Assembly (NCBI RefSeq): GCF_036373705.1
Contig: NW_027102733.1
Coordinates: 28,501 to 92,500, forward strand
Direction: 5' to 3'
Origin: Amia ocellicauda
Taxonomy: Eukaryota > Chordata > Actinopteri > Amiiformes > Amiidae
Length of the DNA: 64,000 bases
Shown here: positions 1-58,674 of the stretch, piece by piece
Layout of the letters: each line of letters opens with the position of its first letter
Position numbering within the stretch: the stretch's first letter is position 1
Made by a program: the position numbers and the translations under genes
Notes under the pieces: model-generated
What the model saw: only the letters and a program-made list of their open reading frames with translations
What the model was told of the DNA's origin: nothing
Database searches by the model: none

Positions 1-568
1 TAACTAGGGTACATTCATAAATAAATTGAGCATCATGGCTAGAAGTGACTAAATGTTGCCTAATCTTTCTCATCGAGAAATGACACAATTACAGCAACAC
101 AAAAAGGAACTCCACCGGACAAAGTTCAGTGCTCACAAGGAGCCTCATTCAACACACACGGTTCCATTCCCATTCATGCAAAGCACGAAAGTGTAAAACT
201 TGGGAACATACTTGAGAGCAAAGATCACATTCAATCTCATTCAAGGCACGGATGTGAATGCAACGGGATGAAATTACTGAAATGATGCCTGCCCTCGAAC
301 TGTGATGATGGACTACCTGATTCGCCAATAATATTGGGTTCTGGTGTATTGAAATACAGGAGCTGCTGGATTTGTGTGTTTTCTTACCCCCTCACCATAG
401 TTTGTCAAATGTTTAAACAACTGAACTTATATTCAAGGTTTGTTTCTCTTCATATGTTTTACTGGTTTACATTTGTCTCAGCAACCTGTTGAATGATTCT
501 TCTGCTTTCAAAACAAAATGACAACAGGATGAATGCACACACTTGAAAATACAATACATGCAATGTTA

Positions 569-585
569 TGCATCATAGTGATGCA
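569..585. repeat. Perfect 7-bp-stem palindrome in the spacer
   Basis: TGCATCA, TAG, TGATGCA: a perfect inverted repeat with a 3-base loop, about 345 bp before the gene. I see it intact in the units I read apart from unit 52, where one arm base is changed. Function unknown. Confidence 0.75.
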
Positions 586-749
586 ACCTCCTTTCAGTTT
601 CATACTGCATGTCAATTGAAATCCTTACTGAAATGCACACCTTCTCAAGATTGCGCTTGACTGGCGTGTCAGGCACTCAATTACAGCTGTTTTATCAAGA
701 CAATGTGTTCGTTTTGTAAAATATAGTTCCGGTCTGGTGTGGCACCCCA

Positions 750-786
750 GCTAACGCACAACGTTGCCACAACGTGGCGTGTTAGC
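750..786. repeat. Nested hairpin around the 11-mer
   Basis: Outer arms GCTAAC (750-755) and GTTAGC (781-786) enclose an inner perfect repeat ACGTTG, CCA, CAACGT (761-775). The 11-mer CAACGTTGCCA (759-769) lies inside and is duplicated in longer units. Class variants just right of it (GGCGTG, TTCGTG, GGCATA) shorten the outer stem only in the last case, to 5 bp. Confidence 0.65.
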
Positions 787-882
787 AGGGACTGTCTGCG
801 GCGCGCTGGTGTGTCCCGGGCTTTAGAGTAGAGAGACAGTTCAACTGTAAGTATGAATGGCAGAAACGGATATTGCCTTCCC

Positions 883-890
883 TTTAAATA
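883..890 (+). promoter_or_regulatory. TATA-like element of gene 1 (-31 to -24)
   Basis: TTTAAATA at -31 to -24 from the gene start. A TATA-like box near -30 is known to aid Pol III transcription of several 5S families. The same slot holds TTTAAGTA in most units, TTTAAATA in units 1, 11, 27 and 37, TTTAACTA in 9, 10, 35 and 36, and TTTAAGAA in 7 and 33. Function is inferred from position. Confidence 0.6.
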
Positions 891-896
891 GAGCGT

Positions 897-913
897 CAGG
901 GACAGCCTCCCTG
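897..913. promoter_or_regulatory. 17-bp dyad next to the 5S start
   Basis: CAGGGA, five bases, then TCCCTG: a perfect 6-bp inverted repeat filling -17 to -1. The stem is intact in most units; loop changes occur in units 3/29 (GAGCC), 20/45 (CGGCC) and 23/24/48/49 (CACCC). The stem is altered only in units 2/12/28/38 (CAGGAA) and 8/34 (TTCCTG). A role is unproven; it may be a promoter part or chance. Confidence 0.5.
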
Positions 914-1033
914 GCTTACGGCCATACTAGCCTGAATACGCCCGATCTCGTCCGATCTCGGAAGCCAAGCAGGCTCGGGCCTGGTCAGTACTTGGATGGG
1001 AGACCGCCTGGGAATACCAGGTGCTGTAAGCTT
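914..1033 (+). rRNA. rn5s: 5S ribosomal RNA, gene 1
   Basis: 5S rRNA is the small RNA of the large ribosomal subunit; it binds uL18 (RPL5) and uL5 (RPL11), and its gene is transcribed by Pol III with TFIIIA. Evidence: 120 nt starting GCTTACGGCC and ending GTAAGCTT; positions 1-9 pair with 110-118 in helix I (one G-U, 7-112); A box, intermediate element and C box are all present; T4 follows at 119-122. Against the vertebrate consensus I recall, pair 3-116 is U-A for C-G, a compensated change, and T15, C61 and C73 differ. C53 distinguishes it from the majority (T53). Unit 1-1174, 1174 bp, single 11-mer, TATA-like TTTAAATA. Confidence 0.97.
963..1010 (+). promoter_or_regulatory. Internal control region of gene 1 (A box, IE, C box)
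   Basis: The known vertebrate 5S internal promoter bound by TFIIIA: A box at gene positions 50-64 (963-977), intermediate element 67-72 (980-985) and C box 80-97 (993-1010, TGGATGGGAGACCGCCTG). Against the vertebrate consensus I recall, the array has C61 for G and C73 for T; the C box is unchanged in most units. The same offsets apply to every gene in the window. Confidence 0.85.
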
Positions 1034-1044
1034 TTGCACCTTTT
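1032..1044 (+). terminator. Twin Pol III T4 terminators of gene 1
   Basis: TTTT at 1032-1035 (gene positions 119-122), then GCACC and a second TTTT at 1041-1044 (positions 128-131). Four or more T on the coding strand stop vertebrate Pol III. Nearly all units keep both runs, usually as TTTTGCATCTTTT; the second looks like a fail-safe. Confidence 0.85.
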
Positions 1045-2087
1045 ACACACCAGAGGGCGACAAATCACGAGTTTTAACTTTGGATACACACAATTTCATC
1101 ATTATTTCAGATTTTACTTCCCCAAATACACAGGCATACAATAGATCTTGTTCTCCAACGTAAACGGTCCCTAGTAACTAGGGTACATTCGTAAATAAAT
1201 TGAGCATCATGGCTAGAAGTGACTAAATGTTGCCTAATCTTTCTCATCAAGAAATGACACAATTACAGCAACACAAAAAGGAACTCCACCGGACAAAGTT
1301 CAGTGCTCACAAGGAGCCTCATTCAACACACACGGTTCCATTCCCATTCATGCAAAGCACGAAAGTGTAAAACTTGGGAACGTACTTGAGAGCAAAGATC
1401 ACATTCAATCTCATTCAAGGCACGGATGTGAATGCAACGGGATGAAATTACTGAAATGATGCCTGCCCTCGAACTGTGATGATGGACTACCCGACTCGCC
1501 AATAATATTGGGTTCTGGTGTATTGAAATACAGGAGCTGCTGGATTTGTGTGTTTTCTTACCCCCTCACCATAGTTTGTCAAATGTTTAAACAACTGAAC
1601 TTATATTCAAGGTTTGTTTCTCTTCATATGTTTTACTGGTTTACATTTGTCTCAGCAACCTGTTGAATGATTCATCTGCTTTCAAAACAAAATGACAACA
1701 GGATGAATGCACACACTTGAAAATACACTACATGCAATGTTATGCATCATAGTGATGCAACCTCCTTTCAGTTTCATACTGCATGTCAATTGAAATCCTT
1801 ACTGAAATGCACACCTTCTCAAGATTGCGCTTGACTGGCGTGACAGGCACTCAATTACAGCTGTTTTATCAAGACAATGTGTTCGTTTTGTAAAATATAG
1901 TTCCGGTCTGGTGTGGCACCCCAGCTAACGCACAACGTTGCCACAACGTGGCGTGTTAGCAGGGACAGTCTGCGGCGCGCTGGTGTGTCCCGGGCTTTAG
2001 AGTAGAGAGACAGTTCAACTGTAAGTATGAACGGCAGAAACGGATATTGCCTTCCCTTTAAGTAGAGCGTCAGGAACAGCCTCCCTG
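1034..2087 (+). other. Representative intergenic spacer between genes 1 and 2
   Basis: About 1.05 kb between the end of one gene and the start of the next, the pattern repeated through the window. After the T4 signals come about 130 bp with ACACACCAGAGGGCGAC and ending CGGTCCC, then the unit start at 1175. I recognise no gene, transposon or microsatellite in it. Sequence conservation from unit to unit is as high in the spacer as in the gene, as expected from concerted evolution rather than from a coding role. Confidence 0.85.
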
Positions 2088-2207
2088 GCTTATGGCCATT
2101 CTAGCCTGAATACGCCCGATCTCGTCCGATCTCGGAAGCCAAGCAGGCTCGGGCCTGGTCAGCACTTGGATGGGAGACTGCCTGGGAATACCAGGTGCTG
2201 TAAGCTT
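2088..2207 (+). rRNA. rn5s: 5S ribosomal RNA, gene 2 (variant)
   Basis: Unit 1175-2348, 1174 bp, single 11-mer. Differs from the majority at C6T (keeps helix I as U-G with G113), A13T, T53C, T76C and C92T; the last is inside the C box. The dyad at -17 to -1 is imperfect (CAGGAA). Among the most diverged genes here; expression uncertain. Confidence 0.95.
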
Positions 2208-3106
2208 TTGCACCTTTTACACACCAGAGGGCGACAAATCACGAGTTTTAACTTTGGATACACACAATTTCATCATTATTTCAGATTTGACTTCCCCAAA
2301 TACACAGGCATACAATAGATCTTGTTCTCCAACGTAAACGGTCCCTAGTAACTAGGGTACATTCGTAACTAAATTGAGCATCATGGCTAGAAGTGACTAA
2401 ATGTTGCCTAATCTTTCTCATCAAGAAATGACACAATTACAGCAACACAAAAAGGAACTCCACCGGACAAAGTTCAGTGCTCACAAGGAGCCTCATTCAA
2501 CACACACGGTTCCATTCCCATTCATGCAAAGCAAGAAAGTGTAAAACTTGGGAACATACTTGAGAGCAAAGATCACATTCAATCTCATTCAAGGCACGGA
2601 TGTGAATGCAACGGGATGAAATTACTGAAATGATGCCTGCCCTCGAACTGTGATGATGGACTACCCGACTCGCCAATCATGTTGGGTTCTGGTGTATTGA
2701 AATACAGGAGCTGCTGGATTTGTATGTTTTCTTACCCCCTCACCATAGTTTGTCAAATGTTTAAACAACTGAACTTATATTCAAGGTTTGTTTCTCTTCA
2801 TATGTTTTACTGGTTTACATTTGTCTCAGCAACCTGTTGAATGATTCTTCTGCTTTCAAAACAAAATGACAACAGGATGAATGCACACACTTGAAAATAC
2901 AATACATGCAATGTTATGCATCATAGTGATGCAACCTCCTTTCAGTTTCATACTGCATGTCAATTGAAATCCTTACTGAAATGCACACCTTGTCAAGATT
3001 GCGCTTGACTCGCGTGTCAGGCACTCAATTACAGCTGTTTTATCAAGACAATGTGTTCGTTTTGTAATATATAGTTCCGGTCTGGTGTGGCACCCCAGCT
3101 AACGCA

Positions 3107-3128
3107 CAACGTTGCCACAATGTTGCCA
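3107..3128 (+). repeat. Double 11-mer, imperfect type (unit 3)
   Basis: CAACGTTGCCA followed by CAATGTTGCCA. This doubling accounts for the 11-bp longer units 3, 4, 5, 8, 13, 19-21 and 26 and their copy B counterparts. Confidence 0.85.
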
Positions 3129-3272
3129 CAACGTGGCGTGTTAGCAGGGACTGTCTGCGGCGCGCTGGTGTGTCCCGGGCTTTAGAGTAGAGAGACAGTT
3201 CAACTGTAAGTATGAACGGCAGAAACGGATATTGCCTTCCCTTTAAGTAGAGCGTCAGGGAGAGCCTCCCTG

Positions 3273-3392
3273 GCTTACGGCCATACTAGCCTGAATACGC
3301 CCGATCTCGTCCGATCTCGGAAGCTAAGCAGGCTCGGGCCTGGTCAGTACTTGGATGGGAGACCGCCTGGGAATACCAGGTGCTGTAAGCTT
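3273..3392 (+). rRNA. rn5s: 5S ribosomal RNA, gene 3 (majority)
   Basis: Majority sequence with intact internal promoter and both T4 runs. Unit 2349-3533, 1185 bp, double 11-mer (CAACG/CAATG). The unit opens with TTCGTAACTAAATTG, a mark shared only with units 13, 29 and 39. Confidence 0.97.
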
Positions 3393-4457
3393 TTGCATCT
3401 TTTACACACCAGAGGGCGACAAATCACGAGTTTTAACTTTGGATACACGCAATTTCATCATTATTTCAGATTTGACTTCCCCAAATACACAGGCATACAA
3501 TAGATCTTGTTCTCCAACGTAAACGGTCCCTAGTAACTAGGGTACATTCGTAAATAAATTGAGCATCATGGCTAGAAGTGACTAAATGTTGCCTAATCTT
3601 TCTCATCGAGAAATGACACAATTACAGCAACACAAAAAGGAACTCCACCGGACAAAGTTCAGTGCTCACAAGGAGCCTCATTCAACACATACGGTTCCAT
3701 TCCCATTCATGCAAAGCACGAAAGTGTAAAACTTGGGAACATACTTGAGAGCAAAGATCACATTCAATCTCATTCAAGGCACGGATGTGAATGCAACGGG
3801 ATGAAATTACTGAAATGATGCCTGCCCTCGAACTGTGATGATGGACTACCCGACTCGCCAATAATATTGGGTTCTGGTGTATTGAAATACAGGAGCTGCT
3901 GGATTTGTGTGTTTTCTTACCCCCTCACCATAGTTTGTCAAATGTTTAAACAACTGAACTTATATTCAAGGTTTGTTTCTCTTCATATGTTTTACTGGTT
4001 TACATTTGTCTCAGCAACCTGTTGAATGATTCTTCTGCTTTCAAAACAAAATGACAACAGGATGAATGCAAACACTTGAAAATACAATACATGCAATGTT
4101 ATGCATCATAGTGATGCAACCTCCTTTCAGTTTCATACTGCATGTCAATTGAAATCCTTACTGAAATGCACACCTTCTCAAGATTGCGCTTGACTGGCGT
4201 GTCAGGCACTCAATTACAGCTGTTTTATCAAGACAATGTGTTCGTTTTGTAATATATAGTTCCGGTCTGGTGTGGCACCCCAGCTAACGCACAACGTTGC
4301 CACAATGTTGCCACAACGTGGCGTGTTAGCAGGGACTGTCTGCGGCGCGCTGGTGTGTCCCGGGCTTTAGAGTAGAGAGACAGTTCAACTGTAAGTATGA
4401 ACGGCAGAAACGGATATTGCCTTCCCTTTAAGTAGAGCGTCAGGGACAGCCTCCCTG

Positions 4458-4577
4458 GCTTACGGCCATACTAGCCTGAATACGCCCAATCTCGTCCGAT
4501 CTCGGAAGCTAAGCAGGCTCGGGCCTGGTCAGTATTTGGATGGGAGACCGCCTGGGAATACCAGGTGCTGTAAGCTT
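4458..4577 (+). rRNA. rn5s: 5S ribosomal RNA, gene 4 (variant)
   Basis: Unit 3534-4718, 1185 bp, double 11-mer. G31A and C78T against the majority. The downstream flank has CAAAGGGCGACAAATCACAAG, linking it to units 18-21. Confidence 0.95.
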
Positions 4578-5642
4578 TTGCATCTTTTACACACCAAAGG
4601 GCGACAAATCACAAGTTTTAACTTTGGATACACGCAATTTCATCATTATTTCAGATTTGACTTCCCCAAATACACAGGCATACAATAGATCTTGTTCTCC
4701 AACGTAAACGGTCCCTAGTAACTAGTGTACATTTGTAAATAAATTGAGCATCATGGCTAGAAGTGACTAAATGTTGCCTAATCTTTCTCATCGAGAAATG
4801 ACACAATTACAGCAACACAAAAAGGAACTCCACCGGACAAAGTTCAGTGCTCACAAGGAGCCTCATTCAACACACACGGTTCCATTCCCATTCATGCAAA
4901 GCACGAAAGTGTAAAACTTGGGAACATACTTGAGAGCAAAGATCACATTGAATCTCATTCAAGGCACGGATGTGAATGCAACGGGATGAAATTACTGAAA
5001 TGATGCCTGCCCTCGAACTGTGATGATGGACTACCCGACTCGCCAATAATATTGGGTTCTGGTGTATTGAAATACAGGAGCTGCTGGATTTGTGTGTTTT
5101 CTTACCCCCTCACCATAGTTTGTCAAATGTTTAAACAACTGAACTTATATTCAAGGTTTGTTTCTCTTCATATGTTTTACTGGTTTACATTTGTCTCAGC
5201 AACCTGTTGAATGATTCTTCTGCTTTCAAAACAAAATGACAACAGGATGAATGCACACACTTGAAAATACAATACATGCAATGTTATGCATCATAGTGAT
5301 GCAACCTCCTTTCAGTTTCATACTGCATGTCAATTGAAATCCTTACTGAAATGCACACCTTCTCAAGATTGCGCTTGACTGGCGTGTCAGGCACTCAATT
5401 ACAGCTGTTTTATCAAGACAATGTGTTCGTTTTGTAATATATAGTTCCGGTCTGGTGTGGCACCCCAGCTAACGCACAACGTTGCCACAATGTTGCCACA
5501 ACGTTTCGTGTTAGCAGGGACTGTCTGCGGCGCGCTGGTGTGTCCCGGGCTTTAGAGTAGAGAGACAGTTCAACTGTAAGTATGAACGGCAGAAACGGAT
5601 ATTGCCTTCCCTTTAAGTAGAGCGTCAGGGACAGCCTCCCTG

Positions 5643-5762
5643 GCTTACGGCCATACTAGCCTGAATACGCCCGATCTCGTCCGATCTCGGAAGCTAAGCA
5701 GGCTCGGGCCTGGTCAGTACTTGGATGGGAGACTGCCTGGGAATACCAGGTGCTGTAAGCTT
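5643..5762 (+). rRNA. rn5s: 5S ribosomal RNA, gene 5 (variant)
   Basis: Unit 4719-5903, 1185 bp, double 11-mer followed by TTCGTG. C92T in the C box is its only gene change; the copy B counterpart (gene 31) has C92. The unit opens TAACTAGTGTACATTTG, as units 19-22 do. Confidence 0.95.
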
Positions 5763-6817
5763 TTGCATCTTTTACACACCAGAGGGCGACAAATCACGAG
5801 TTTTAACTTTGGATACACGCAATTTCATCATTATTTCAGATTTGACTTCCCCAAATACACAGGCATACAATAGATCTTGTTCTCCAACGTAAACGGTCCC
5901 TAGTAACTAGGGTACATTCGTAAATAAATTGAGCATCATGGCTAGAAGTGACTAAATGTTGCCTAATCTTTCTCATCGAGAAATGACACAATTACAGCAA
6001 CACAAAAAGGAACTCCACCGGACAAAGTTCAGTGCTCACAAGGAGCCTCATTCAACACACACGGTTCCATTCCCATTCATGCAAAGCACGAAAGTGTAAA
6101 ACTTGGGAACATACTTGAGAGCAAAGATCACATTCAATCTCATTCAAGGCACGGATGTGAATGCAACGGGATGAAATTACTGAAATGATGCCTGCCCTCG
6201 AACTGTGATGATGGACTACCCGACTCGCCAATAATATTGGGTTCTGGTGTATTGAAATACAGGAGCTGCTGGATTTGTGTGTTTTCTTACCCCCTCACCA
6301 TAGTTTGTCAAATGTTTAAACAACTGAACTTATATTCAAGGTTTGTTTCTCTTCATATGTTTTACTGGTTTACATTTGTCTCAGCAACCTGTTGAATGAT
6401 TCTTCTGCTTTCAAAACAAAATGACAACAGGATGAATGCACACACTTGAAAATACAAAACATGCAATGTTATGCATCATAGTGATGCAACCTCCTTTCAG
6501 TTTCATACTGCATGTCAATTGAAATCCTTACTGAAATGCACACCTTCTCAAGATTGCGCTTGACTGGCGTGTCAGGCACTCAATTACAGCTGTTTTATCA
6601 AGACAAATGTGTTCGTTTTGTAAAATATAGTTCCGGTCTGGTGTGGCACCCCAGCTAACGCACAACGTTGCCACAACGTGGCATATTAGCAGGGACTGTC
6701 TGCGGCGCGCTGGTGTGTCCCGGGCTTTAGAGTAGAGAGACAGTTCAACTGTAAGTATGAACGGCAGAAACGGATATTGCCATCCCTTTAAGTAGAGCGT
6801 CAGGGACAGCCTCCCTG

Positions 6818-6937
6818 GCTTACGGCCATACTAGCCTGAATACGCCCGATCTCGTCCGATCTCGGAAGCTAAGCAGGCTCGGGCCTGGTCAGTACTTGGA
6901 TGGGAGACCGCCTGGGAATACCAGGTGCTGTAAGCTT
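6818..6937 (+). rRNA. rn5s: 5S ribosomal RNA, gene 6 (majority)
   Basis: Unit 5904-7078, 1175 bp: single 11-mer plus the extra A (GACAAATG), with GGCATATTAGC and GCCATCCC before the gene and AGAGCGCGAC after it. First member of the 1175-bp class in the window. Confidence 0.97.
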
Positions 6938-7961
6938 TTGCATCTTTTACACACCAGAGCGCGACAAATCACGAGTTTTAACTTTGGATACACGCAATTT
7001 CATCATTATTTCAGATTTGACTTCCCCAAATACACAGGCATACAATAGATCTTGTTCTCCAACGTAAACGGTCCCTAGTAACTAGGGTACATTCGTAAAT
7101 AAATTGAGCATCATGGCTAGAAGTGACTAAATGTTGCCTAATCTTTCTCATCGAGAAATGACACAATTACAGCAACACAAAAAGGAACTCCACCGGACAA
7201 AGATCAGTGCTCACAAGGAGCCTCATTCAACACACACGGTTCCATTCCCATTCATGCAAAGCACGAAAGTGTAAAACTTGGGAACATACTTGAGAGCAAA
7301 GATCACATTCAATCTCATTCAAGGCACGGATGTGAATGCAACGGGGTGAAATTACTGAAATGATGCCTGCCCTCGAACTGTGAAGATGGACTACCCGACT
7401 CGCCAATAATATTGGGTTCTGGTGTATTGAAATACAGGAGCTGCTGGATTTGTGTGTTTTCTTACCCCCTCACCATAGTTTGTCAAATGTTTAAACAACT
7501 GAACTTATATTCAAGGTTTGTTTCTCTTCATATGTTTTACTGGTTTACATTTGTCTCAGCAACCTGTTGAATGATTCTTCTGCTTTCAAAACAAAATGAC
7601 AACAGGATGAATGCACACACTTGAAAATATAATACATGCAATGTTATGCATCATAGTGATGCAACCTCCTTTCAGTTTCATACTGCATGTCAATTGAAAT
7701 CCTTACTGAAATGCACACCTTCTCAAGATTGCGCTTGACTGGCGTGTCAGGCACTCAATTACAGCTGTTTTATCAAGACAAATGTGTTCGTTTTGTAAAA
7801 TATAGTTCCGGTCTGGTGTGGCACCCCAGCTAACGCACAACGTTGCCACAACGTTTCGTGTTAGCAGGGACTGTCTGCGGCGCGCTGGTGTGTCCCGGAC
7901 TTTAGAGTAGAGAGACAGTTCAACTGCAAGCATGAGCGGCAGAAACGGATATTGCCTTCCC

Positions 7962-7969
7962 TTTAAGAA
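7962..7969 (+). promoter_or_regulatory. Variant TATA-like element of gene 7
   Basis: TTTAAGAA at -31 to -24, also before gene 33 (38614-38621). The T of the usual AAGTA is lost, and the gene itself has a change in the A box, so this unit may be weaker. Confidence 0.5.
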
Positions 7970-7992
7970 GAGCGTCAGGGACAGCCTCCCTG

Positions 7993-8112
7993 GCTTACGG
8001 CCATACTAGCCTGAATACGCCCGATCTCGTCCGATCTCGGAAGCTAAGCTGGCTCGGGCCTGGTCAGTACTTGGATGGGAGACCGCCTGGGAATACCAGG
8101 TGCTGTAAGCTT
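7993..8112 (+). rRNA. rn5s: 5S ribosomal RNA, gene 7 (A-box variant)
   Basis: Unit 7079-8253, 1175 bp. A58T inside the A box (AAGCTGG for AAGCAGG), with TTTAAGAA in place of the usual TATA-like element, and ACTGCAAGCATGAGCGG upstream. Both promoter parts are altered, so this gene may be poorly used; that is inference. Confidence 0.94.
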
Positions 8113-9177
8113 TTGCATATTTTACACACCAGAGGGCGACAAATCACGAGTTTTAACTTTGGATACACACAATTTCATCATTATTTCAGGTTTTACTTCC
8201 CCAAATACACAGGCATACAATAGATCTTGTTCTCCAACGTAAAAGGTCCCTAGTAACTAGGGTACATTCATAAATAAATTGAGCATCATGGCTAGAAGTG
8301 TCTAAATGTTGCCTAATCTTTCTCATCGAGAAATGACACAATTACAGCAACACAAAAAGGAACTCCACCGGACAAAGTTCAGTGCTCACAAGGAGCCTCA
8401 TTCAACACACACGGTTCCATTCCCATTCATGCAAAGCACGAAAGTGTAAAACTTGGGAACATACTTGAGAGCAAAGATCACATTCAATCTCATTCAAGGC
8501 ACGGATGTGAATGCAACGGGATGAAATTACTGAAATGATGCCTGCCCTCGAACTGTGATGATGGACTACCCGACTCGCCAATAATATTGGGTTCTGGTGT
8601 ATTGAAATACAGGAGCTGCTGGATTTGTGTGTTTTCTTACCCCCTCACCATAGTTTGTCAAATGTTTAAACAACTGAACTTATATTCAAGGTTTATTTTT
8701 CTTCATATGTTTTACTGGTTTACATTTGTCTCAGCAACCTGTTGAATGATTCTTCTGCTTTCAAAACAAAATGACAACAGGATGAATGCACACACTTGAA
8801 AATACAATACATGCAATGTTATGCATCATAGTGATGCAACCTCCTTTCAGTTTCATACTGCATGTCAATTGAAATCCTTACTGAAATGCACACCTTCTCA
8901 AGATTGCGCTTGACTGGCGTGTCAGGCACTCAATTACAGCTGTTTTATCAAAACAATGTGTTCGTTTTGTAATATATACTTCCGGTCTGGTGTGGCACCC
9001 CAGCTAACGCACAACGTTGCCACAATGTTGCCACAACGTGGCGTGTTAGCAGGGACTGTCTGCGGCGCGCTGGTGTGTCCCGGGCTTTAGAGTAGAGAGA
9101 CAGTTCAACTGTAAGTATGAACGGCAGAAACGGATATTGCCTTCCCTTTAAGTAGAGCGTCAGGGACAGCCTTCCTG

Positions 9178-9297
9178 GCTTACGGCCATACTAGCCTGAA
9201 TACGCTCGATCTCGTCCGATCTCGGAAGCTAAGCAGGCTCGGGCCTGGTCAGTACTTGAATGGGAGACCGCCTGGGAATACCAGGTGCTGTAAGCTT
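9178..9297 (+). rRNA. rn5s: 5S ribosomal RNA, gene 8 (variant)
   Basis: Unit 8254-9438, 1185 bp, double 11-mer. C29T, and G82A in the C box. The dyad arm is TTCCTG. The spacer has GTTTATTTTTCTTC and AAAACAATG; the latter recurs in unit 26. Confidence 0.94.
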
Positions 9298-10196
9298 TTG
9301 CATCTTTTACACACCAGAGGGCGACAAATCACGAGTTTTAACTTTGGATACACGCAATTTCATCATTATTTCAGATTTGACTTCCCCAAATACACAGGCA
9401 TACAATAGATCTTGTTCTCCAACGTAAACGGTCCCTAGTAACTAGGGTACATTCATAAATAAATTGAGCATCATGGCTAGAAGTGACTAAATGTTGCCTA
9501 ATCTTTCTCATCGAGAAATGACACAATTACAGCAACACAAAAAGGAACTCCACCGGACAAAGTTCAGTGCTCACAAGGAGCCTCATTCAACACACACGGT
9601 TCCATTCCCATTCATGCAAAGCACGAAAGTGTAAAACTTGGGAACATACTTGAGAGCAAAGATCACATTCAATCTCATTCAAGGCACGGATGTGAATGCA
9701 ACGGGATGAAATTACTGAAATGATGCCTGCCCTCGAACTGTGATGATGGACTACCTGATTCGCCAATAATATTGGGTTCTGGTGTATTGAAATACAGGAG
9801 CTGCTGGATTTGTGTGTTTTCTTACCCCCTCACCATAGTTTGTCAAATGTTTAAACAACTGAACTTATATTCAAGGTTTGTTTCTCTTCATATGTTTTAC
9901 TGGTTTACATTTGTCTCAGCAACCTGTTGAATGATTCTTCTGCTTTCAAAACAAAATGACAACAGGATGAATGCACACACTTGAAAATACAATACATGCA
10001 ATGTTATGCATCATAGTGATGCAACCTCCTTTCAGTTTCATACTGCATGTCAATTGAAATCCTTACTGAAATGCACACCTTCTCAAGATTGCGCTTGACT
10101 GGCGTGTCAGGCACTCAATTACAGCTGTTTTATCAAGACAATGTGTTCGTTTTGTAAAATATAGTTCCGGTCTGGTGTGGCACCCCAGCTAACGCA

Positions 10197-10218
10197 CAAC
10201 GTTGCCACAACGTTGCCA
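10197..10218 (+). repeat. Double 11-mer, perfect type (unit 9)
   Basis: CAACGTTGCCA twice without change, found only in units 9, 10, 35 and 36. It is either a younger duplication than the CAACG/CAATG type or a corrected form of it. Confidence 0.8.
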
Positions 10219-10331
10219 CAACGTGGCGTGTTAGCAGGGACTGTCTGCGGCGCGCTGGTGTGTCCCGGGCTTTAGAGTAGAGAGACAGTTCAACTGTAAG
10301 TATGAACGGCAGAAACGGATATTGCCTTCCC

Positions 10332-10339
10332 TTTAACTA
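10332..10339 (+). promoter_or_regulatory. Variant TATA-like element of gene 9
   Basis: TTTAACTA at -31 to -24, found only upstream of the four genes that lack the first terminator (also 11516-11523, 40984-40991 and 42168-42175). Confidence 0.5.
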
Positions 10340-10362
10340 GAGCGTCAGGGACAGCCTCCCTG

Positions 10363-10482: not shown

Positions 10483-10489
10483 CTTCACC

Positions 10490-48200: not shown

Positions 48201-49255
48201 TTGCATCTTTTACACACCAGAGCGCGACAAATCACGAGTTTTAACTTTGGATACACGCAATTTCATCATTATTTCAGATTTGACTTCCCCAAATACACAG
48301 GCATACAATAGATCTTGTTCTCCAACGTAAACGGTCCCTAGTAACAAGGGTACATTCGTAAATAAATTGAGCATCATGGCTAGAAGTGACTAAATGTTGC
48401 CTAATCTTTCTCATCGAGAAATGACACAATTACAGCAACACAAAAAGGAACTCCACCGGACAAAGATCAGTGCTCACAAGGAGCCTCATTCAACACACAC
48501 GGTTCCATTCCCATTCATGCAAAGCACGAAAGTGTAAAACTTGGGAACATACTTGAGAGCAAAGATCACATTCAATCTCATTCAAGGCACGGATGTGAAT
48601 GCAACGGGGTGAAATTACTGAAATGATGCCTGCCCTCGAACTGTGATGATGGACTACCCGACTCGCCAATAATATTGGGTTCTGGTGTATTGAAATACAG
48701 GAGCTGCTGGATTTGTGTGTTTTCTTACCCCCTCACCATAGTTTGTCAAATGTTTAAACAACTGAACTTATATTCAAGGTTTGTTTCTCTTCATATGTTT
48801 TACTGGTTTACATTTGTCTCAGCAACCTGTTGAATGATTCTTCTGCTTTCAAAACAAAATGACAACAGGATGAATGCACACACTTGAAAATACAATACAT
48901 GCAATGTTATGCATCATAGTGATGCAACCTCCTTTCAGTTTCATACTGCATGTCAATTGAAATCCTTACTGAAATGCACACCTTCTCAAGATTGCGCTTG
49001 ACTGGCGTGTCAGGCACTCAATTACAGCTGTTTTATCAAGACAAATGTGTTCGTTTTGTAAAATATAGATCCGGTCTGGTGTGGCACCCCAGCTAACGCA
49101 CAACGTTGCCACAACGTGGCATATTAGCAGGGACTGTCTGCGGCGCGCTGGTGTGTCCCGGGCTTTAGAGTAGAGAGACAGTTCAACTGTAAGTATGAAC
49201 GGCAGAAACGGATATTGCCATCCCTTTAAGTAGAGCGTCAGGGACAGCCTCCCTG

Positions 49256-49375
49256 GCTTACGGCCATACTAGCCTGAATACGCCCGATCTCGTCCGATCT
49301 CGGAAGCTAAGCAGGCTCGGGCCTGGTCAGTACTTGGATGGGAGACCGCCTGGGAATACCAGGTGCTGTAAGCTT
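49256..49375 (+). rRNA. rn5s: 5S ribosomal RNA, gene 42 (= gene 16, majority)
   Basis: Unit 48342-49516, opening TAACAAGGG. Confidence 0.97.
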
Positions 49376-50430
49376 TTGCATCTTTTACACACCAGAGCGC
49401 GACAAATCACGAGTTTTAACTTTGGATACACGCAATTTCATCATTATTTCAGATTTGACTTCCCCAAATACACAGGCATACAATAGATCTTGTTCTCCAA
49501 CGTAAACGGTCCCTAGTAACTAGGGTACATTCGTAAATAAATTGAGCATCATGGCTAGAAGTGACTAAATGTTGCCTAATCTTTCTCATCGAGAAATGAC
49601 ACAATTACAGCAACACAAAAAGGAACTCCACCGGACAAAGATCAGTGCTCACAAGGAGCCTCATTCAACACACACAGTTCCATTCCCATTCATGCAAAGC
49701 ACGAAAGTGTAAAACTTGGGAACATACTTGAGAGCAAAGATCACATTCAATCTCATTCAAGGCACGGATGTGAATGCAACGGGATGAAATTACTGAAATG
49801 ATGCCTGCCCTCGAACTGTGATGATGGACTACCCGACTCGCCAATAATATTGGGTTCTGGTGTATTGAAATACAGGAGCTGCTGGATTTGTGTGTTTTCT
49901 TACCCCCTCACCATAGTTTGTCAAATGTTTAAACAACTGAACTTATATTCAAGGTTTGTTTCTCTTCATATGTTTTACTGGTTTACATTTGTCTCAGCAA
50001 CCTGTTGAATGATTCTTCTGCTTTCAAAACAAAATGACAACAGGATGAATGCACACACTTGAAAATACAATACATGCAATGTTATGCATCATAGTGATGC
50101 AACCTCCTTTCAGTTTCATACTGCATGTCAATTGAAATCCTTACTGAAATGCACACCTTCTCAAGATTGCGCTTGACTGGCGTGTCAGGCACTCAATTAC
50201 AGCTGTTTTATCAAGACAAATGTGTTCGTTTTGTAAAATATAGTTCCGGTCTGGTGTGGCACCCCAGCTAACGCACAACGTTGCCACAACGTGGCATATT
50301 AGCAGGGACTGTCTGCGGCGCGCTGGTGTGTCCCGGGCTTTAGAGTAGAGAGACAGTTCAACTGTAAGTATGAACGGCAGAAACGGATATTGCCATCCCT
50401 TTAAGTAGAGCGTCAGGGACAGCCTCCCTG

Positions 50431-50550
50431 GCTTACGGCCATACTAGCCTGAATACGCCCGATCTCGTCCGATCTCGGAAGCTAAGCAGGCTCGGGCCTG
50501 GTCAGTACTTGGATGGGAGACCGCCTGGGAATACCAGGTGCTGTAAGCTT
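50431..50550 (+). rRNA. rn5s: 5S ribosomal RNA, gene 43 (= gene 17, majority)
   Basis: Unit 49517-50691, with CACACAGTTCC in the spacer and CAAAGGGCGAC after the gene. Confidence 0.97.
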
Positions 50551-51604
50551 TTGCATCTTTTACACACCAAAGGGCGACAAATCACGAGTTTTAACTTTGG
50601 ATACACGCAATTTCATCATTATTTCAGATTTGACTTCCCCAAATACACAGGCATACAATAGATCTTGTTCTCCAACGTAAACGGTCCCTAGTAACTAGGG
50701 TACATTCGTAAATAAATTGAGCATCATGGCTAGAAGTGACTAAATGTTGCCTAATCTTTCTCATCGAGAAATGACACAATTACAGCAACACAAAAAGGAA
50801 CTCCACCGGACAAAGATCAGTGCTCACAAGGAGCCTCATTCAACACACACGGTTCCATTCCCATTCATGCAAAGCACGAAAGTGTAAAACTTGGGAACAT
50901 ACTTGAGAGCAAAGATCACATTCAATCTCATTCAAGGCACGGATGTGAATGCAACGGGATGAAATTACTGAAATGATGCCTGCCCTCGAACTGTGATGAT
51001 GGACTACCCGACTCGCCAATAATATTGGGTTCTGGTGTATTGAAATACAGGAGCTGCTGGATTTGTGTGTTTTCTTACCCCCTCACCATAGTTTGTCAAA
51101 TGTTTAAACAACTGAACTTATATTCAAGGTTTGTTTCTCTTCATATGTTTTACTGGTTTACATTTGTCTCAGCAACCTGTTGAATGATTCTTCTGCTTTC
51201 AAAACAAAATGACAACAGGATGAATGCACACACTTGAAAATACAATACATGCAATGTTATGCATCATAGTGATGCAACCTCCTTTCAGTTTCATACTGCA
51301 TGTCAATTGAAATCCTTACTGAAATGCACACCTTCTCAAGATTGCGCTTGACTGGCGTGTCAGGCACTCAATTACAGCTGTATTATCAAGACAATGTGTT
51401 CGTTTTGTAAAATATAGTTCCGGTCTGGTGTGGCACCCCAGCTAACGCACAACGTTGCCACAACGTTTCGTGTTAGCAGGGACTGGCTGCGGCGCGCTGG
51501 TGTGTCCCGGGCTTTAGAGTAGAGAGACAGTTCAACTGCAAGTATGAGCGGCAGAAACGGATATTGCCTTCCCTTTAAGTAGAGCGTCAGGGACAGCCTC
51601 CCTG

Positions 51605-51724
51605 GCTTACGGCCATACTAGCCTGAATACGCCCGATCTCGTCCGATCTCGGAAGCTAAGCAGGCTCGGGCCTGGTCAGTACTTGGATGGGAGACCGCCT
51701 GGGAATACCAGGTGCTGTAAGCTT
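51605..51724 (+). rRNA. rn5s: 5S ribosomal RNA, gene 44 (= gene 18, majority)
   Basis: Unit 50692-51865, with the private ACTGGCTGCGG and GTATTATC of unit 18. Confidence 0.97.
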
Positions 51725-52789
51725 TTGCATCTTTTACACACCAAAGGGCGACAAATCACAAGTTTTAACTTTGGATACACGCAATTTCATCATTATTTCA
51801 GATTTGACTTCCCCAAATACACAGGCATACAATAGATCTTGTTCTCCAACGTAAACGGTCCCTAGTAACTAGTGTACATTTGTAAATAAATTGAGCATCA
51901 TGGCTAGAAGTGACTAAATGTTGCCTAATCTTTCTCATCGAGAAATGACACAATTATAGCAACACAAAAAGGAACTCCACCGGACAAAGTTCAGTGCTCA
52001 CAAGGAGCCTCATTCAACACACACGGTTCCATTCCCATTCATGCAAAGCACGAAAGTGTAAAACTTGGGAACATACTTGAGAGCAAAGATCATATTCAAT
52101 CTCATTCAAGGCACGGATGTGAATGCAACGGGATGAAATTACTGAAATGATGCCTGCCCTCGAACTGTGATGATGGACTACCCGACTCGCCAATAATATT
52201 GGGTTCTGGTGTATTGAAATACAGGAGCTGCTGGATTTGTGTGTTTTCTTACCCCCTCACCATAGTTTGTCAAATGTTTAAACAACTGAACTTATATTCA
52301 AGGTTTGTTTCTCTTCATATGTTTTACTGGTTTACATTTGTCTCAGCAACCTGTTGAATGATTCTTCTGCTTTCAAAACAAAATGACAAAAGGATGAATG
52401 CACACACTTGAAAATACAATACATGCAATGTTATGCATCATAGTGATGCAACCTCCTTTCAGTTTCATACTGCATGTCAATTGAAATCCTTACTGAAATG
52501 CACACCTTCTCAAGATTGCGCTTGACTGGCGTGTCAGGCACTCAATTACAGCTGTTTTATCAAGACAATGTGTTCGTTTTGTAATATATAGTTCCGGTCT
52601 GGTGTGGCACCCCAGCTAACGCACAACGTTGCCACAATGTTGCCACAACGTGGCGTGTTAGCAGGGACTGTCTGCGGCGCGCTGGTGTGTCCCGGGCTTT
52701 AGAGTAGAGAGACAGTTCAACTGTAAGTATGAATGGCAGAAACGGATATTGCCTTCCCTTTAAGTAGAGCGTCAGGGACGGCCTCCCTG

Positions 52790-52909
52790 GCTTATGGCCA
52801 TACTAGCCTGAATACGCCCGATCTCGTCCGATCTCGGAAGCTAAGCAGGCTCGGGCCTGGTCAGTACTTGGATGGGAGACCGCCTGGGAATACCAGGTGC
52901 TGTAAGCTT
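52790..52909 (+). rRNA. rn5s: 5S ribosomal RNA, gene 45 (C6T; stands for genes 19 and 20)
   Basis: Unit 51866-53050, 1185 bp. C6T only. CAACGTGG after the 11-mer and G64 are as in unit 19, while the dyad loop CGGCC is as in unit 20. The next unit matches unit 21, so one unit is absent relative to copy A. Confidence 0.95.
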
Positions 52910-53974
52910 TTGCATCTTTTACACACCAAAGGGCGACAAATCACAAGTTTTAACTTTGGATACACGCAATTTCATCATTATTTCAGATTTGACTTCCCCA
53001 AATACACAGGCATACAATAGATCTTGTTCTCCAACGTAAACGGTCCCTAGTAACTAGTGTACATTTGTAAATAAATTGAGCATCATGGCTAGAAGTGACT
53101 AGATGTTGCCTAATCTTTCTCATCGAGAAATGACACAATTACAGCAACACAAAAAGGAACTCCACCGGACAAAGTTCAGTGCTCACAAGGAGCCTCATTC
53201 AACACACACGGTTCCATTCCCATTCATGCAAAGCACGAAAGTGTAAAACTTGGGAACATACTTGAGAGCAAAGATCACATTGAATCTCATTCAAGGCACG
53301 GATGTGAATGCAACGGGATGAAATTACTGAAATGATGCCTGCCCTCGAACTGTGATGATGGACTACCCGACTCGCCAATAATATTGGCTTCTGGTGTATT
53401 GAAATACAGGAGCTGCTGGATTTGTGTGTTTTCTTACCCCCTCACCATAGTTTGTCAAATGTTTAAACAACTGAACTTATATTCAAGGTTTGTTTCTCTT
53501 CATATGTTTTACTGGTTTACATTTGTCTCAGCAACCTGTTGAATGATTCTTCTGCTTTCAAAACAAAATGACAACAGGATGAATGCACACACTTGAAAAT
53601 ACAATACATGCAATGTTATGCATCATAGTGATGCAACCTCCTTTCAGTTTCATACTGCATGTCAATTGAAATCCTTACTGAAATGCACACCTTCTCAAGA
53701 TTGCGCTTGACTGGCGTGTCAGGCACTCAATTACAGCTGTTTTATCAAGACAATGTGTTCGTTTTGTAATATATAGTTCCGGTCTGGTGTGGCACCCCAG
53801 CTAACGCACAACGTTGCCACAATGTTGCCACAACGTTTCGTGTTAGCAGGGACTGTCTGCGGCGCGCTGGTGTGTCCCGGGCTTTAGAGTAGAGAGACAG
53901 TTCAACTGTAAGTATGAACGGCAGAAACGGATATTGCCTTCCCTTTAAGTAGAGCGTCAGGGACAGCCTCCCTG

Positions 53975-54094
53975 GCTTACGGCCATACTAGCCTGAATAC
54001 GCCCGATCTCGTCCGATCTCGGAAGCTAAGCAGGCTCGGGCCTTGTCAGTACTTGGATGGGAGACCGCCTGGGAATACCAGGTGCTGTAAGCTT
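53975..54094 (+). rRNA. rn5s: 5S ribosomal RNA, gene 46 (= gene 21, G70T)
   Basis: Unit 53051-54235. G70T and the GACTAGATG mark of unit 21; from here the offset to copy A is 29,467 bp. Confidence 0.95.
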
Positions 54095-55149
54095 TTGCAT
54101 CTTTTACACACCAAAGGGCGACAAATCACAAGTTTTAACTTTGGATACACGCAATTTCATCATTATTTCAGATTTGACTTCCCCAAATACACAGGCATAC
54201 AATAGATCTTGTTCTCCAACGTAAACGGTCCCTAGTAACTAGTGTACATTTGTAAATAAATTGAGCATCATGGCTAGAAGTGACTAAATGTTGCCTAATC
54301 TTTCTCATCGAGAAATGACACAATTACAGCAACACAAAAAGGAACTCCACCGGACAAAGTTCAGTGCTCACAAGGAGCCTCATTCAACACACACGGTTCC
54401 ATTCCCATTCATGCAAAGCACGAAAGTGTAAAACTTGGGAACATACTTGAGAGCAAAGATCACATTGAATCTCATTCAAGGCACGGATGTGAATGCAACG
54501 GGATGAAATTACTGAAATGATGCCTGCCCTCGAACTGTGATGATGGACTACCCGACTCGCCAATAATATTGGGTTCTGGTGTATTGAAATACAGGAGCTG
54601 CTGGATTTGTGTGTTTTCTTACCCCCTCACCATAGTTTGTCAAATGTTTAAACAACTGAACTTATATTCAAGGTTTGTTTCTCTTCATATGTTTTACTGG
54701 TTTACATTTGTCTCAGCAACCTGTTGAATGATTCTTCTGCTTTCAAAACAAAATGACAACAGGATGAATGCACACACTTGAAAATACAAAACATGCAATG
54801 TTATGCATCATAGTGATGCAACCTCCTTTCAGTTTCATACTGCATGTCAATTGAAATCCTTACTGAAATGCACACCTTCTCAAGATTGCGCTTGACTGGC
54901 GTGTCAGGCACTCAATTACAGCTGTTTTATCAAGACAAATGTGTTCGTTTTGTAAAATATAGTTCCGGTCTGGTGTGGCACCCCAGCTAACGCACAACGT
55001 TGCCACAACGTGGCATATTAGCAGGGACTGTCTGCGGCGCGCTGGTGTGTCCCGGGCTTTAGAGTAGAGAGACAGTTCAACTGTAAGTATGAACGGCAGA
55101 AACGGATATTGCCATCCCTTTAAGTAGAGCGTCAGGGACAGCCTCCCTG

Positions 55150-55269
55150 GCTTACGGCGATACTAGCCTGAATACGCCCGATCTCGTCCGATCTCGGAAG
55201 CTAAGCAGGCTCGGGCCTGGTCAGTACTTGGATGGGAGACCGCCTGGGAATACCAGGTGCTGTAAGCTT
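55150..55269 (+). rRNA. rn5s: 5S ribosomal RNA, gene 47 (C10G)
   Basis: Unit 54236-55410; counterpart of unit 22. C10G (GGCGATACT), just beyond helix I, is absent from gene 22 and unique in the window, so it is either a recent mutation or a base-call error. Confidence 0.95.
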
Positions 55270-56324
55270 TTGCATCTTTTACACACCAGAGCGCGACAAA
55301 TCACGAGTTTTAACTTTGGATACACGCAATTTCATCATTATTTCAGATTTGACTTCCCCAAATACACAGGCATACAATAGATCTTGTTCTCCAACGTAAA
55401 CGGTCCCTAGTAACTAGGGTACATTCGTAAATAAATTGAGCATCATGGCTAGAAGTGACTAAATGTTGCCTAATCTTTCTCATCGAGAAATGACACAATT
55501 ACAGCAACACAAAAAGGAACTCCACCGGACAAAGATCAGTGCTCACAAGGAGCCTCATTCAACACACACGGTTCCATTCCCATTCATGCAAAGCACGAAA
55601 GTGTAAAACTTGGGAACATACTTGATAGCAAAGATCACATTCAATCTCATTCAAGGCACGGATGTGAATGCAACGGGGTGAAATTACTGAAATGATGCCT
55701 GCCCTCGAACTGTGATGATGGACTACCCGACTCGCCAATAATATTGGGTTCTGGTGTATTGAAATACAGGAGCTGCTGGATTTGTGTGTTTTCTTACCCC
55801 CTCACCATAGTTTGTCAAATGTTTAAACAACTGAACTTATATTCAAGGTTTGTTTCTCTTCATATGTTTTACTGGTTTACATTTGTCTCAGCAACCTGTT
55901 GAATGATTCTTCTGCTTTCAAAACAAAATGACAACAGGATGAATGCACACACTTGAAAATACAATACATGCAATGTTATGCATCATAGTGATGCAACCTC
56001 CTTTCAGTTTCATACTGCATGTCAATTGAAATCCTTACTGAAATGCACACCTTCTCAAGATTGCGCTTGACTGGCGTGTCAGGCACTCAATTACAGCTGT
56101 TTTATCAAGACAAATGTGTTCGTTTTGTAAAATATAGTTCCGGTCTGGTGTGGCACCCCAGCTAACGCACAACGTTGCCACAACGTGGCATATTAGCAGG
56201 GACTGTCTGCGGCGCGCTGGTGTGTCCCGGGCTTTAGAGTAGAGAGACAGTTCAACTGTAAGTATGAACGGCAGAAACGGATATTGCCATCCCTTTAAGT
56301 AGAGCGTCAGGGACACCCTCCCTG

Positions 56325-56444
56325 GCTTACGGCCATACTAGCCTGAATACGCCCGATCTCGTCCGATCTCGGAAGCTAAGCAGGCTCGGGCCTGGTCAGT
56401 ACTTGGATGGGAGACCGCCTGGGAATACCAGGTGCTGTAAGCTT
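56325..56444 (+). rRNA. rn5s: 5S ribosomal RNA, gene 48 (= gene 23, majority)
   Basis: Unit 55411-56585, with ACTTGATAGC in the spacer and CACCC in the dyad loop. Confidence 0.97.
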
Positions 56445-57499
56445 TTGCATCTTTTACACACCAGAGCGCGACAAATCACGAGTTTTAACTTTGGATACAC
56501 GCAATTTCATCATTATTTCAGATTTGACTTCCCCAAATACACAGGCATACAATAGATCTTGTTCTCCAACGTAAACGGTCCCTAGTAACTAGGGTACATT
56601 CGTAAATAAATTGAGCATCATGGCTAGAAGTGACTAAATGTTGCCTAATCTTTCTCATCGAGAAATGACACAATTACAGCAACACAAAAAGGAACTCCAC
56701 CGGACAAAGATCAGTGCTCACAAGGAGCCTCATTCAACACACACGGTTCCATTCCCATTCATGCAAAGCACGAAAGTGTAAAACTTGGGAACATACTTGA
56801 GAGCAAAGATCACATTGAATCTCATTCAAGGCACGGATGTGAATGCAACGGGATGAAATTACTGAAATGATGCCTGCCCTCGAACTGTGATGATGGACTA
56901 CCCGACTCGCCAATAATATTGGGTTCTGGTGTATTGAAATACAGGAGCTGCTGGATTTGTGTGTTTTCTTACCCCCTCACCATAGTTTGTCAAATGTTTA
57001 AACAACTGAACTTATATTCAAGGTTTGTTTCTCTTCATATGTTTTACTGGTTTACATTTGTCTCAGCAACCTGTTGAATGATTCTTCTGCTTTCAAAACA
57101 AAATGACAACAGGATGAATGCACACACTTGAAAATACAATACATGCAATGTTATGCATCATAGTGATGCAACCTCCTTTCAGTTTCATACTGCATGTCAA
57201 TTGAAATCCTTACTGAAATGCACACCTTCTCAAGATTGCGCTTGACTGGCGTGTCAGGCACTCAATTACAGCTGTTTTATCAAGACAAATGTGTTCGTTT
57301 TGTAAAATATAGTTCCGGTCTGGTGTGGCACCCCAGCTAACGCACAACGTTGCCACAACGTGGCATATTAGCAGGGACTGTCTGCGGCGCGCTGGTGTGT
57401 CCCGGGCTTTAGAGTAGAGAGACAGTTCAACTGTAAGTATGAACGGCAGAAACGGATATTGCCATCCCTTTAAGTAGAGCGTCAGGGACACCCTCCCTG

Positions 57500-57619
57500 G
57501 CTTACGGCCATACTAGCCTGAATACGCCCGATCTCGTCCGATCTCGGAAGCTAAGCAGGCTCGGGCCTGGTCAGTACTTGGATGGGAGACCGCCTGGGAA
57601 TACCAGGTGCTGTAAGCTT
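57500..57619 (+). rRNA. rn5s: 5S ribosomal RNA, gene 49 (= gene 24, majority)
   Basis: Unit 56586-57760. Last unit of copy B; T56675 replaces C27208. Confidence 0.97.
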
Positions 57620-58674
57620 TTGCATCTTTTACACACCAGAGCGCGACAAATCACGAGTTTTAACTTTGGATACACGCAATTTCATCATTATTTCAGATTT
57701 GACTTCCCCAAATACACAGGCATACAATAGATCTTGTTCTCCAACGTAAACGGTCCCTAGTAACTAGGGTACATTCGTAAATAAATTGAGCATCATGGCT
57801 AGAAGTGACTAAATGTTGCCTAATCTTTCTCATCGAGAAATGACACAATTACAGCAACACAAAAAGGAACTCCACCGGACAAAGATCAGTGCTCACAAGG
57901 AGCCTCATTCAACACACACGGTTCCATTCCCATTCATGCAAAGCACGAAAGTGTAAAACTTGGGAACATACTTGAGAGCAAAGATCACATTCAATCTCAT
58001 TCAAGGCACGGATGTGAATGCAACGGGATGAAATTACTGAAATGATGCCTGCCCTCGAACTGTGATGATGGACTACCCGACTCGCCAATAATATTGGGTT
58101 CTGGTGTATTGAAATACAGGAGCTGCTGGATTTGTGTGTTTTCTTACCCCCTCACCATAGTTTGTCAAATGTTTAAACAACTGAACTTATATTCAAGGTT
58201 TGTTTCTCTTCATATGTTTTACTGGTTTACATTTGTCTCAGCAACCTGTTGAATGATTCTTCTGCTTTCAAAACAAAATGACAACAGGATGAATGCACAC
58301 ACTTGAAAATACAATACATGCAATGTTATGCATCATAGTGATGCAACCTCCTTTCAGTTTCATACTGCATGTCAATTGAAATCCTTACTGAAATGCACAC
58401 CTTCTCAAGATTGCGCTTGACTGGCGTGTCAGGCACTCAATTACAGCTGTTTTATCAAGACAAATGTGTTCGTTTTGTAAAATATAGTTCCGGTCTGGTG
58501 TGGCACCCCAGCTAACGCACAACGTTGCCACAACGTGGCATATTAGCAGGGACTGTCTGCGGCGCGCTGGTGTGTCCCGGGCTTTAGAGTAGAGAGACAG
58601 TTCAACTGTAAGTATGAACGGCAGAAACGGATATTGCCATCCCTTTAAGTAGAGCGTCAGGGACAGCCTCCCTG

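What the first reader, a model, noticed from the sequence alone, without database searches (positions are those of the whole stretch)
1..57760. 30.65-kb higher-order repeat inside a 5S array
Units 1-24 recur in the same order at 30653-57760 with their private mutations, and I spotted only a handful of base differences plus one missing unit. Ordinary concerted evolution by single-unit exchange would not keep 24 units in order, so a block of about 26 units was copied at once and very recently. The alternative is an assembly artefact, such as two haplotypes or overlapping reads placed in tandem; the one-unit gap would then be an allelic difference.
Basis: partly seen in the sequence, partly recalled or inferred. 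Interest (0 to 1): 0.75.

Follow-up and report, generated by a model that had tools for sequence, protein, structure and literature searches.

The report
Block-duplicated 5S ribosomal RNA gene array
A run of 26 tandem 5S rRNA gene units (30.7 kb) appears to have been duplicated as one block, most likely by misaligned recombination; this is a known process, seen here in unusually clear detail.

Summary
The window has 54 full 5S units of 1,173-1,185 bp. Units 1-24 recur in order at 30653-57760 with their private variants, 8-9 substitutions and one unit missing. In the rest of the contig (C98) the match starts 2,373 bp left of the window. So the block is exactly 26 units (30,652 bp) and the junction lies at 28,279-28,417, not 30,653. 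Units 25-26 open the second copy.

Other contigs of the assembly carry other forms of the locus. C357 has one copy of the block between matching flanks. C368 has an overlapping 18-unit tandem duplication. Two sites pair first copy with first and second with second between C98 and C368, and none pairs otherwise, so a C98-only assembly artefact is unlikely. The junction unit carries one variant of the unit it must have mispaired with.

Best reading: homologous unequal exchange of 26 units, probably between non-identical chromosomes, followed by loss of one unit (C98) and eight units (C368). No read data were available. It is a good example of a known process, not a new kind of element.

The parts
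1..28278 (+). First copy (A) of the block, units 1-24; continues 2,373 bp left of the window (from contig C98 26,127)
28279..28417 (+). Junction interval between copies A and B, in the spacer 3' of the unit-24 5S gene
   Evidence: last left-end mismatch at contig 26,126 (counterpart window 28,278) and first right-end mismatch at 28,418; the interval would widen leftward to about 28,176 if the exchange partner lacked the 1160T variant, as C368 does
28294..30652 (+). Units 25-26, the first two units of copy B; counterparts lie just left of the window with 0 differences
28279..57745 (+). Second copy (B), 25 units (one lost); the right end is uncertain up to 57,884
27119..28293 (+). Unit 24 of A, the junction unit; carries 90C (window 27,208), the allele of the unit left of the block (contig 24,968)
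21214..22398 (+). Unit 19 of A; its counterpart is missing in B if B unit 45 is read as unit 20 (it is identical to C357's unit 20)
51866..53050 (+). B unit 45, at the site of the lost unit
57761..64000 (+). Right flank: near-uniform units 50-54 and part of 55; 50-54 identical to C357
914..63493 (+). 54 5S rRNA genes at 1,173-1,185 bp spacing (first gene start to last gene end)
   Evidence: Rfam RF00001, 98.5-115.5 bits; spacing

Best explanation
A real segmental tandem duplication inside a 5S rDNA array. Two chromatids paired 26 units out of register, unit 24 of one lying against the unit just left of the block on the other. A homologous exchange in the spacer just 3' of the 5S gene joined the end of one copy to the start of the next. 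Later unequal exchanges removed one unit from copy B in C98 and, in the related contig C368, eight units across the junction. SHOWN: the block, its length, the in-register junction, the single-copy form in C357, the 18-unit two-copy form in C368, and the shared copy-specific alleles. INFERRED: that the C368 form is the C98 form cut back; crossing-over rather than break-induced replication or circle reinsertion; partners being non-identical chromosomes rather than sister chromatids (about 0.55); and the order of events. The 0.8 given as confidence is for a real duplication; the replication/circle rival lies inside it.
For: In-register junction without gap. The left end predicted from the tandem-duplication model was then found: 2,373 bp beyond the window with 0 mismatches. 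C357 holds the flanks and one block: 26 of 26 block units in order, at most 3 differences to the nearer C98 copy, and 5 of 5 right-flank units identical. C368 holds a different, overlapping tandem duplication; in the 17 units where all four copies exist, 713A is in both second copies and 157T in both first copies, and the split count is 2:0:0. The junction unit carries 90C, an allele of the unit it must have paired with; the chance for one random substitution is about 0.5%. 935G of copy B is found at 2 places in the genome, the other being C357. Of the 12 places of the u25 tag, only the C98 junction is preceded by the exact 262-base junction sequence (52 places; compared); the place at the very start of C133 could not be judged.
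Against: No reads were available. Three contigs share the same left flank (C98, C357, C368), more than two alleles of one diploid locus, so at least one is a paralogue or an assembly extra. The pairing of copies rests on two sites, and by raw counts the second copy of C368 is equally near to A and B (3 differences each in 17 units). 157T and 713A each also occur once on C8, in places I could not fetch. A 16.4-kb stretch without any A/B difference, with differences on both sides, is longer than even spacing predicts (P about 0.007, post hoc) and could mean reads of the two copies were mixed there. 90C occurs at 21 places, so it could be an older variant.
Confidence: 0.8

Rival explanations
1. 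False duplication: two haplotypes (one with 157T, one with 713A/935G) were joined end to end by the assembler in C98.
For: A and B carry different alleles that also occur on other contigs: 157T with C368's first copy, 713A with its second copy, 935G with C357; B's right flank (5 of 5 units) is identical to C357. A one-unit difference would be a plausible allelic difference.
Against: No N in the window; gaps between the copies on one scaffold are named as a mark of false duplications (PMC9516828, passages). The units that would have to be taken for each other (u-2 and u24) differ at 19 sites. C368 would need a second false join with the same first/second copy alleles at a different unit. The isolated 90C patch is not expected from a simple join.
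Confidence: 0.15
2. Real duplication made by break-induced replication or by reinsertion of an extrachromosomal circle of 26 units.
For: Array change needing RAD52 and PIF1 is reported for human centromeres (PMC11034957, abstract). The end product would look the same.
Against: Nothing here requires it. Different alleles on A and B do not fit a circle made from one chromatid unless differences arose later.
Confidence: 0.2
3. Two independent unequal exchanges made the duplications of C98 (26 units) and C368 (18 units). This concerns C368 and can be true beside the best explanation.
For: The junctions differ: u24|u-1 in C98, u17|u0 in C368. The C368 junction sequence occurs once and the C98 junction next to the u25 tag once. 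By raw counts C368's second copy is as near to A as to B.
Against: Needs the same pair of parental alleles (157T left, 713A right) twice; no site groups the two copies of C98 against the two of C368 (0 against 2).
Confidence: 0.25
4. Unit-by-unit concerted evolution produced the similar order by chance.
For: Single-unit exchange seems to occur in this array (tags of units 7 and 8 repeated 1,174 bp apart in C343 and C362). The number of runs of 3 or more similar units in the window (2) is not above chance (mean 1.4, maximum 6 in 200 shuffles).
Against: 19 of 28 pairs at 26 units' offset differ by <=2; maximum 6 in 10,000 shuffles. Longest run 19 window units against at most 6 in 200 shuffles.
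Confidence: 0.01

Closest known systems
Higher-order repeats of alpha and other satellites (recalled; reviews seen in listing only)
   Same: A block of diverged monomers copied as one unit, so copies of the block are far more alike than neighbours inside it.
   Different: Only two copies here, in a gene array with 1.18-kb units; no long regular run of the block was seen in what was fetched.
Drosophila melanogaster histone gene cluster (PMC12400953, passages)
   Different: Here a 26-unit step has base-level ends, and the copies carry different alleles, which points to exchange between non-identical chromosomes.
5S rDNA of pikes, Esox (PMC5437419; abstract, first part of Results and section 19)
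   Same: Highly amplified fish 5S arrays with homogeneous and mixed blocks of spacer variants.
   Different: The pike study sorted 10-30 kb reads by block organisation; ordered multi-unit block duplication is not described in the parts read. There the gene is less variable than the spacer; here it is not.
Maize Mo17 5S array (PMC10335936, passages)
   Same: Completely assembled 5S array (1,387 copies) with many unit genotypes and one end judged younger.
   Different: The passages read describe genotype distribution, not block copying.

Membership tests
5S rDNA tandem array | Repeated 5S rRNA genes in head-to-tail order with a common spacer | tested here: met
   54 Rfam hits, all +, spacing 1,173-1,185 bp
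5S rDNA tandem array | Genes are transcribed and functional | not testable with these tools
   No expression data; 87 of 241 compared units carry the consensus gene, and the gene is not less variable than the spacer
Higher-order repeat | Copies of a multi-unit block far more alike than units within it | tested here: met
   0-2 differences per unit pair against 13.5 between neighbours
Higher-order repeat | Many successive copies of the same block | tested here: not met
   Two copies in C98, one in C357, two shorter ones in C368; among 30 u07 tags a spacing of 30,652 occurs only in C98, though one C8 pair is 30,679 apart with another tag between
Product of unequal homologous exchange | Tandem copies joined in register at a point of homology, match length equal to offset | tested here: met
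   Match begins after contig 26,126 and ends between window 28,279 and 28,417, one offset (30,652) later
Product of unequal homologous exchange | Reciprocal deletion product exists | not tested
   No population data; C357 is single-copy but is not the reciprocal product
Product of unequal homologous exchange | Conversion patch from the mispaired partner near the junction | tested here: inconclusive
   One site, 90C, fits
False assembly duplication | Gap between the copies on the scaffold | tested here: not met
   No N in the window
False assembly duplication | Half read depth over both copies; no read across the join | not testable with these tools
   No reads held

The most novel reading that the evidence does not exclude
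This 5S array turns over mainly in steps of many units, through exchange between non-identical chromosomes. Three structural forms of one locus then preserve a traceable history: a single block (C357), a 26-unit duplication (C98), and the same duplication cut back by eight units (C368), with a conversion patch at the original junction. If so, the exchange partner and the step size of rDNA concerted evolution can be read directly from long-read assemblies.
Probability: 0.4. Interest if true: 0.6.

Novelty: new member of a known kind. Interest (0 to 1): 0.4.

Why it matters
Models of concerted evolution need the step size and the partner of unequal exchange, which are hard to see because array units are usually too alike (general knowledge, not from a call). 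Here 126 variable alignment columns among 54 units make the ends, the partner unit and later losses readable to about 140 bp. If real, it also shows that near-identical 30-kb blocks in such arrays need not be haplotype artefacts and need long reads to settle.

Tried and rejected
Chance order: rejected by shuffles. A 30.65-kb repeat found many times in the genome: not seen with the u07, u08 and u25 tags (30, 30 and 12 places; exact spacing 30,652 only in C98; one C8 pair of u07 tags is 30,679 apart with another tag between). Using the junction sequence as a unique tag: the 262-base junction occurs at 52 places, so it is not unique by itself; only its adjacency to the u25 tag is. The first unit cut by an exact anchor missed variant units (43 instead of 54) and was redone from the 5S starts. 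Older nested block duplications inside the block (units 2-3 like 12-13, 4 differences each; unit 5 like 21, 6) look likely, but short runs occur by chance, so I make no claim. Units that spanned an N stretch were dropped before the unit comparisons (one place in C98, two in C357, two in C133). Species: 'fish-like' 5S is my recall only; not identified. The u18 pattern did not complete. The 5S copy number of the genome was not counted.
Full report
WHAT IS THERE. The window is 5S rDNA from end to end: 54 genes on the + strand (Rfam), spaced 1,173-1,185 bp. Aligned units show 126 variable columns. They differ on average at 17.3 sites, and neighbours at 13.5. The main length difference (1,174/1,175 against 1,185) is an 11-bp insertion of the repeat CACAACGTTGC in the spacer.

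THE REPEAT. At offset 30,652 the sequence from 1 to 22,127 matches with five substitutions: 203, 712, 1468, 3690, 5734. After one unit is missing in the second copy, offset 29,467 continues until 28,418, with differences at 25,692 and 27,208 and, if B unit 45 is taken as unit 20, also at 23,183 and 23,386: nine substitutions in about 29.5 kb (0.03%). If unit 45 is taken as unit 19 there are eight. At 26 units' offset 19 of 28 pairs differ at <=2 sites, against a maximum of 6 in 10,000 shuffles of unit order.

ITS TRUE ENDS. The window is C98:28,501-92,500 of a 988-Mb assembly in 385 contigs. In the fetched rest of C98 (123,831 bp; part of it reads N) the match begins after contig 26,126 and runs without mismatch to window 203. 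A tandem duplication of length P matches itself at offset P over one length P, so the junction must lie where the match ends in copy A. It ends before 28,418, and the left end maps to 28,278. The junction is therefore at 28,279-28,417, in the spacer just 3' of unit 24's 5S gene (28,033-28,151), and the block is 26 units or 30,652 bp. Units 25-26 belong to copy B.

OTHER FORMS OF THE LOCUS. Tags from units 7, 8 and 25 led to other contigs. I fetched 80 kb each of C357 and C368 and 40 kb of C133 (parts of C357 and C133 read N) and compared unit by unit. C357 has the same left flank, one block (26 of 26 units in order) and the same right flank (5 of 5 units, no difference). In the left flank, 19 of 21 C98 units have a one-to-one counterpart with <=3 differences in both C357 and C368; the other two look like a local two-unit gain in C98, and C357 and C368 have one unit without a close counterpart in C98 (my reading). 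C368 has the left flank, then units u-1 to u17, then a return to u0 and onward to u24 and u50: an 18-unit tandem duplication whose second copy lacks unit 5 and has what looks like a u21/u22 fusion. C133 is a more distant version, only partly readable.

COPY-SPECIFIC ALLELES. In the 17 units present in all four copies (C98 A and B, C368 first and second), two sites are shared by two copies: 713A in unit 1, in both second copies, and 157T in unit 4, in both first copies. No site groups the copies in another way (2:0:0). A third site, 1006T in unit 5, is in A, C368's first copy and C357 but not in B; unit 5 is missing from C368's second copy, so it does not count. Raw distances over u0-u17 are less telling: A-B 5, A-C368 first 3, B-C368 first 8, A-C368 second 3, B-C368 second 3. 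Genome-wide, exact patterns put 713A at three places (C98 B, C368 second copy, C8:9,419,699), 157T at three (C98 A, C368 first copy, C8:8,596,712), and 935G of unit 22 at two (C98 B and C357). The shortest history is one duplication, older than the split of C98 and C368, followed in C368 by loss of eight units (u18-u24 and the second u-1) through an exchange between u17 and u25. That C368 junction sequence is found once in the genome. Two independent exchanges between similar parents remain possible.

THE JUNCTION UNIT. Unit 24 of A differs from B's unit 49, and from C357's u24, only by 90C. 90C is the allele of the unit just left of the block (contig 24,968) in C98, C357 and C368 alike, which is the unit that u24 must have faced if the chromatids slipped by 26 units. 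A random substitution would hit one of that unit's alleles with a chance of about 0.5%. This looks like a small conversion patch. It is one site, and 90C occurs at 21 places.

THE MISSING UNIT. B's unit 45 is identical to C357's unit 20, and A's unit 19 is identical to C357's unit 19. So B most simply lost a unit rather than A gaining one. A's unit 20 has two variants that C357's and B's lack.

REAL OR ARTEFACT. For real: no N, in-register junction, a related two-copy form in a second contig with matching copy-specific alleles, and the 90C patch. For published false duplications, gaps between copies and half depth are named as marks (PMC9516828, passages). Against: no reads were held; three contigs share the left flank, which a diploid locus cannot have without a paralogue or an extra; 16.4 kb of A and B show no difference while both sides do (P about 0.007, post hoc); and assemblies of 5S clusters from different data can disagree strongly in copy number (Arabidopsis, PMC9757041, passages). 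I put 0.8 on a real duplication.

MECHANISM. An unequal homologous exchange explains the in-register junction and the match length. Because A and B carry alleles found on other contigs, exchange between non-identical chromosomes (homologues or paralogous arrays) is somewhat more likely than between sisters. Break-induced replication or circle reinsertion give the same product and cannot be told apart here. With a mutation rate of 0.5-1 x 10^-8 per site and generation (recalled, not from a call), 0.03% would mean roughly 15,000-30,000 generations since A and B shared an ancestor, an upper bound for the duplication if the alleles are older.

SETTING. The array is long and spread over C8 (matches from 7.31 to 9.81 Mb) and many smaller contigs. 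The u07 and u08 tags occur at 30 places each, 29 of them as an ordered pair. Spacings of neighbouring u07 tags under 45 kb (1,174, 7,088, 9,437, 11,787, 20,039, 23,591 and 30,652 bp) suggest block steps of several sizes. Unit gain and loss between haplotypes is described for the Drosophila histone cluster (PMC12400953, passages), and local similarity of units for human rDNA (PMC8559705, passages).

NOVELTY. Ten paper searches were made; those naming 5S rDNA or 5S rRNA genes found 5, 2, 44, 0, 21, 109 and 16 papers, listed only in part for 47, 68 and 73. From titles, abstracts' openings and the parts read, none reports a base-resolved multi-unit block duplication in a 5S array; I opened parts of nine papers only, and most subscription papers are not held. 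The process itself is standard, so this is a new member of a known kind.

Noticed in passing
241 units of C98, C357, C368, C133: The 5S gene is not less variable than the spacer (0.0118 against 0.0090 deviations per bp; 44 of 119 gene sites and 237 of 1,056 spacer sites vary), and 87 of 241 units carry the consensus gene. Pike 5S is the opposite (PMC5437419). Suggests weak constraint here; units are related, so counts are not independent.
   Followed up: partly
genome-wide: The tags of units 7 and 8 occur at 30 places each, 29 of them as an ordered pair, over C8 and many small contigs: an ordered module far more widespread than the 26-unit duplication.
   Followed up: partly
C343:406,133-408,098 and C362:426,037-428,002: u07 and u08 tags each repeated 1,174 bp apart imply a u08/u07 hybrid unit, the classical product of single-unit unequal exchange, in two contigs (sequence not fetched).
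   Followed up: no
for example C133:45,286/50,016, C173:1,826/6,556, C343:361,635/366,365: The same unit transition recurs 4,730 bp apart in seven contigs (C8, C74, C133, C173, C343, C358, C362): a widespread four-unit module.
   Followed up: no
C357 and C368: Four tag or hit positions keep an offset of 134,826-134,837 from C357:263,270 to 443,534, so these contigs look like alleles or a very long array duplication.
   Followed up: partly
window 5,735-22,127 against 36,387-52,779: 16.4 kb without a single A/B difference between regions that have them; conversion, mixed reads or chance.
   Followed up: partly
G000:C8:23,038,506-23,038,624: A single 5S hit on the + strand far from the array (112.6 bits, best candidates only); possibly a separate 5S locus, as zebrafish has separate maternal and somatic 5S loci (PMC11075544, passages).
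   Followed up: no
C98:14,348; C357:421,462; C368:286,636: One unit type with about 35 variants against the reference unit, more than the other units listed, kept in three contigs.
   Followed up: no
C8 about 9,593,906-9,634,022: Four u07 tags within 40 kb, spaced 9,437, 23,591 and 7,088 bp; two of them, with another between, are 30,679 bp apart, close to but not equal to the C98 step.
   Followed up: no
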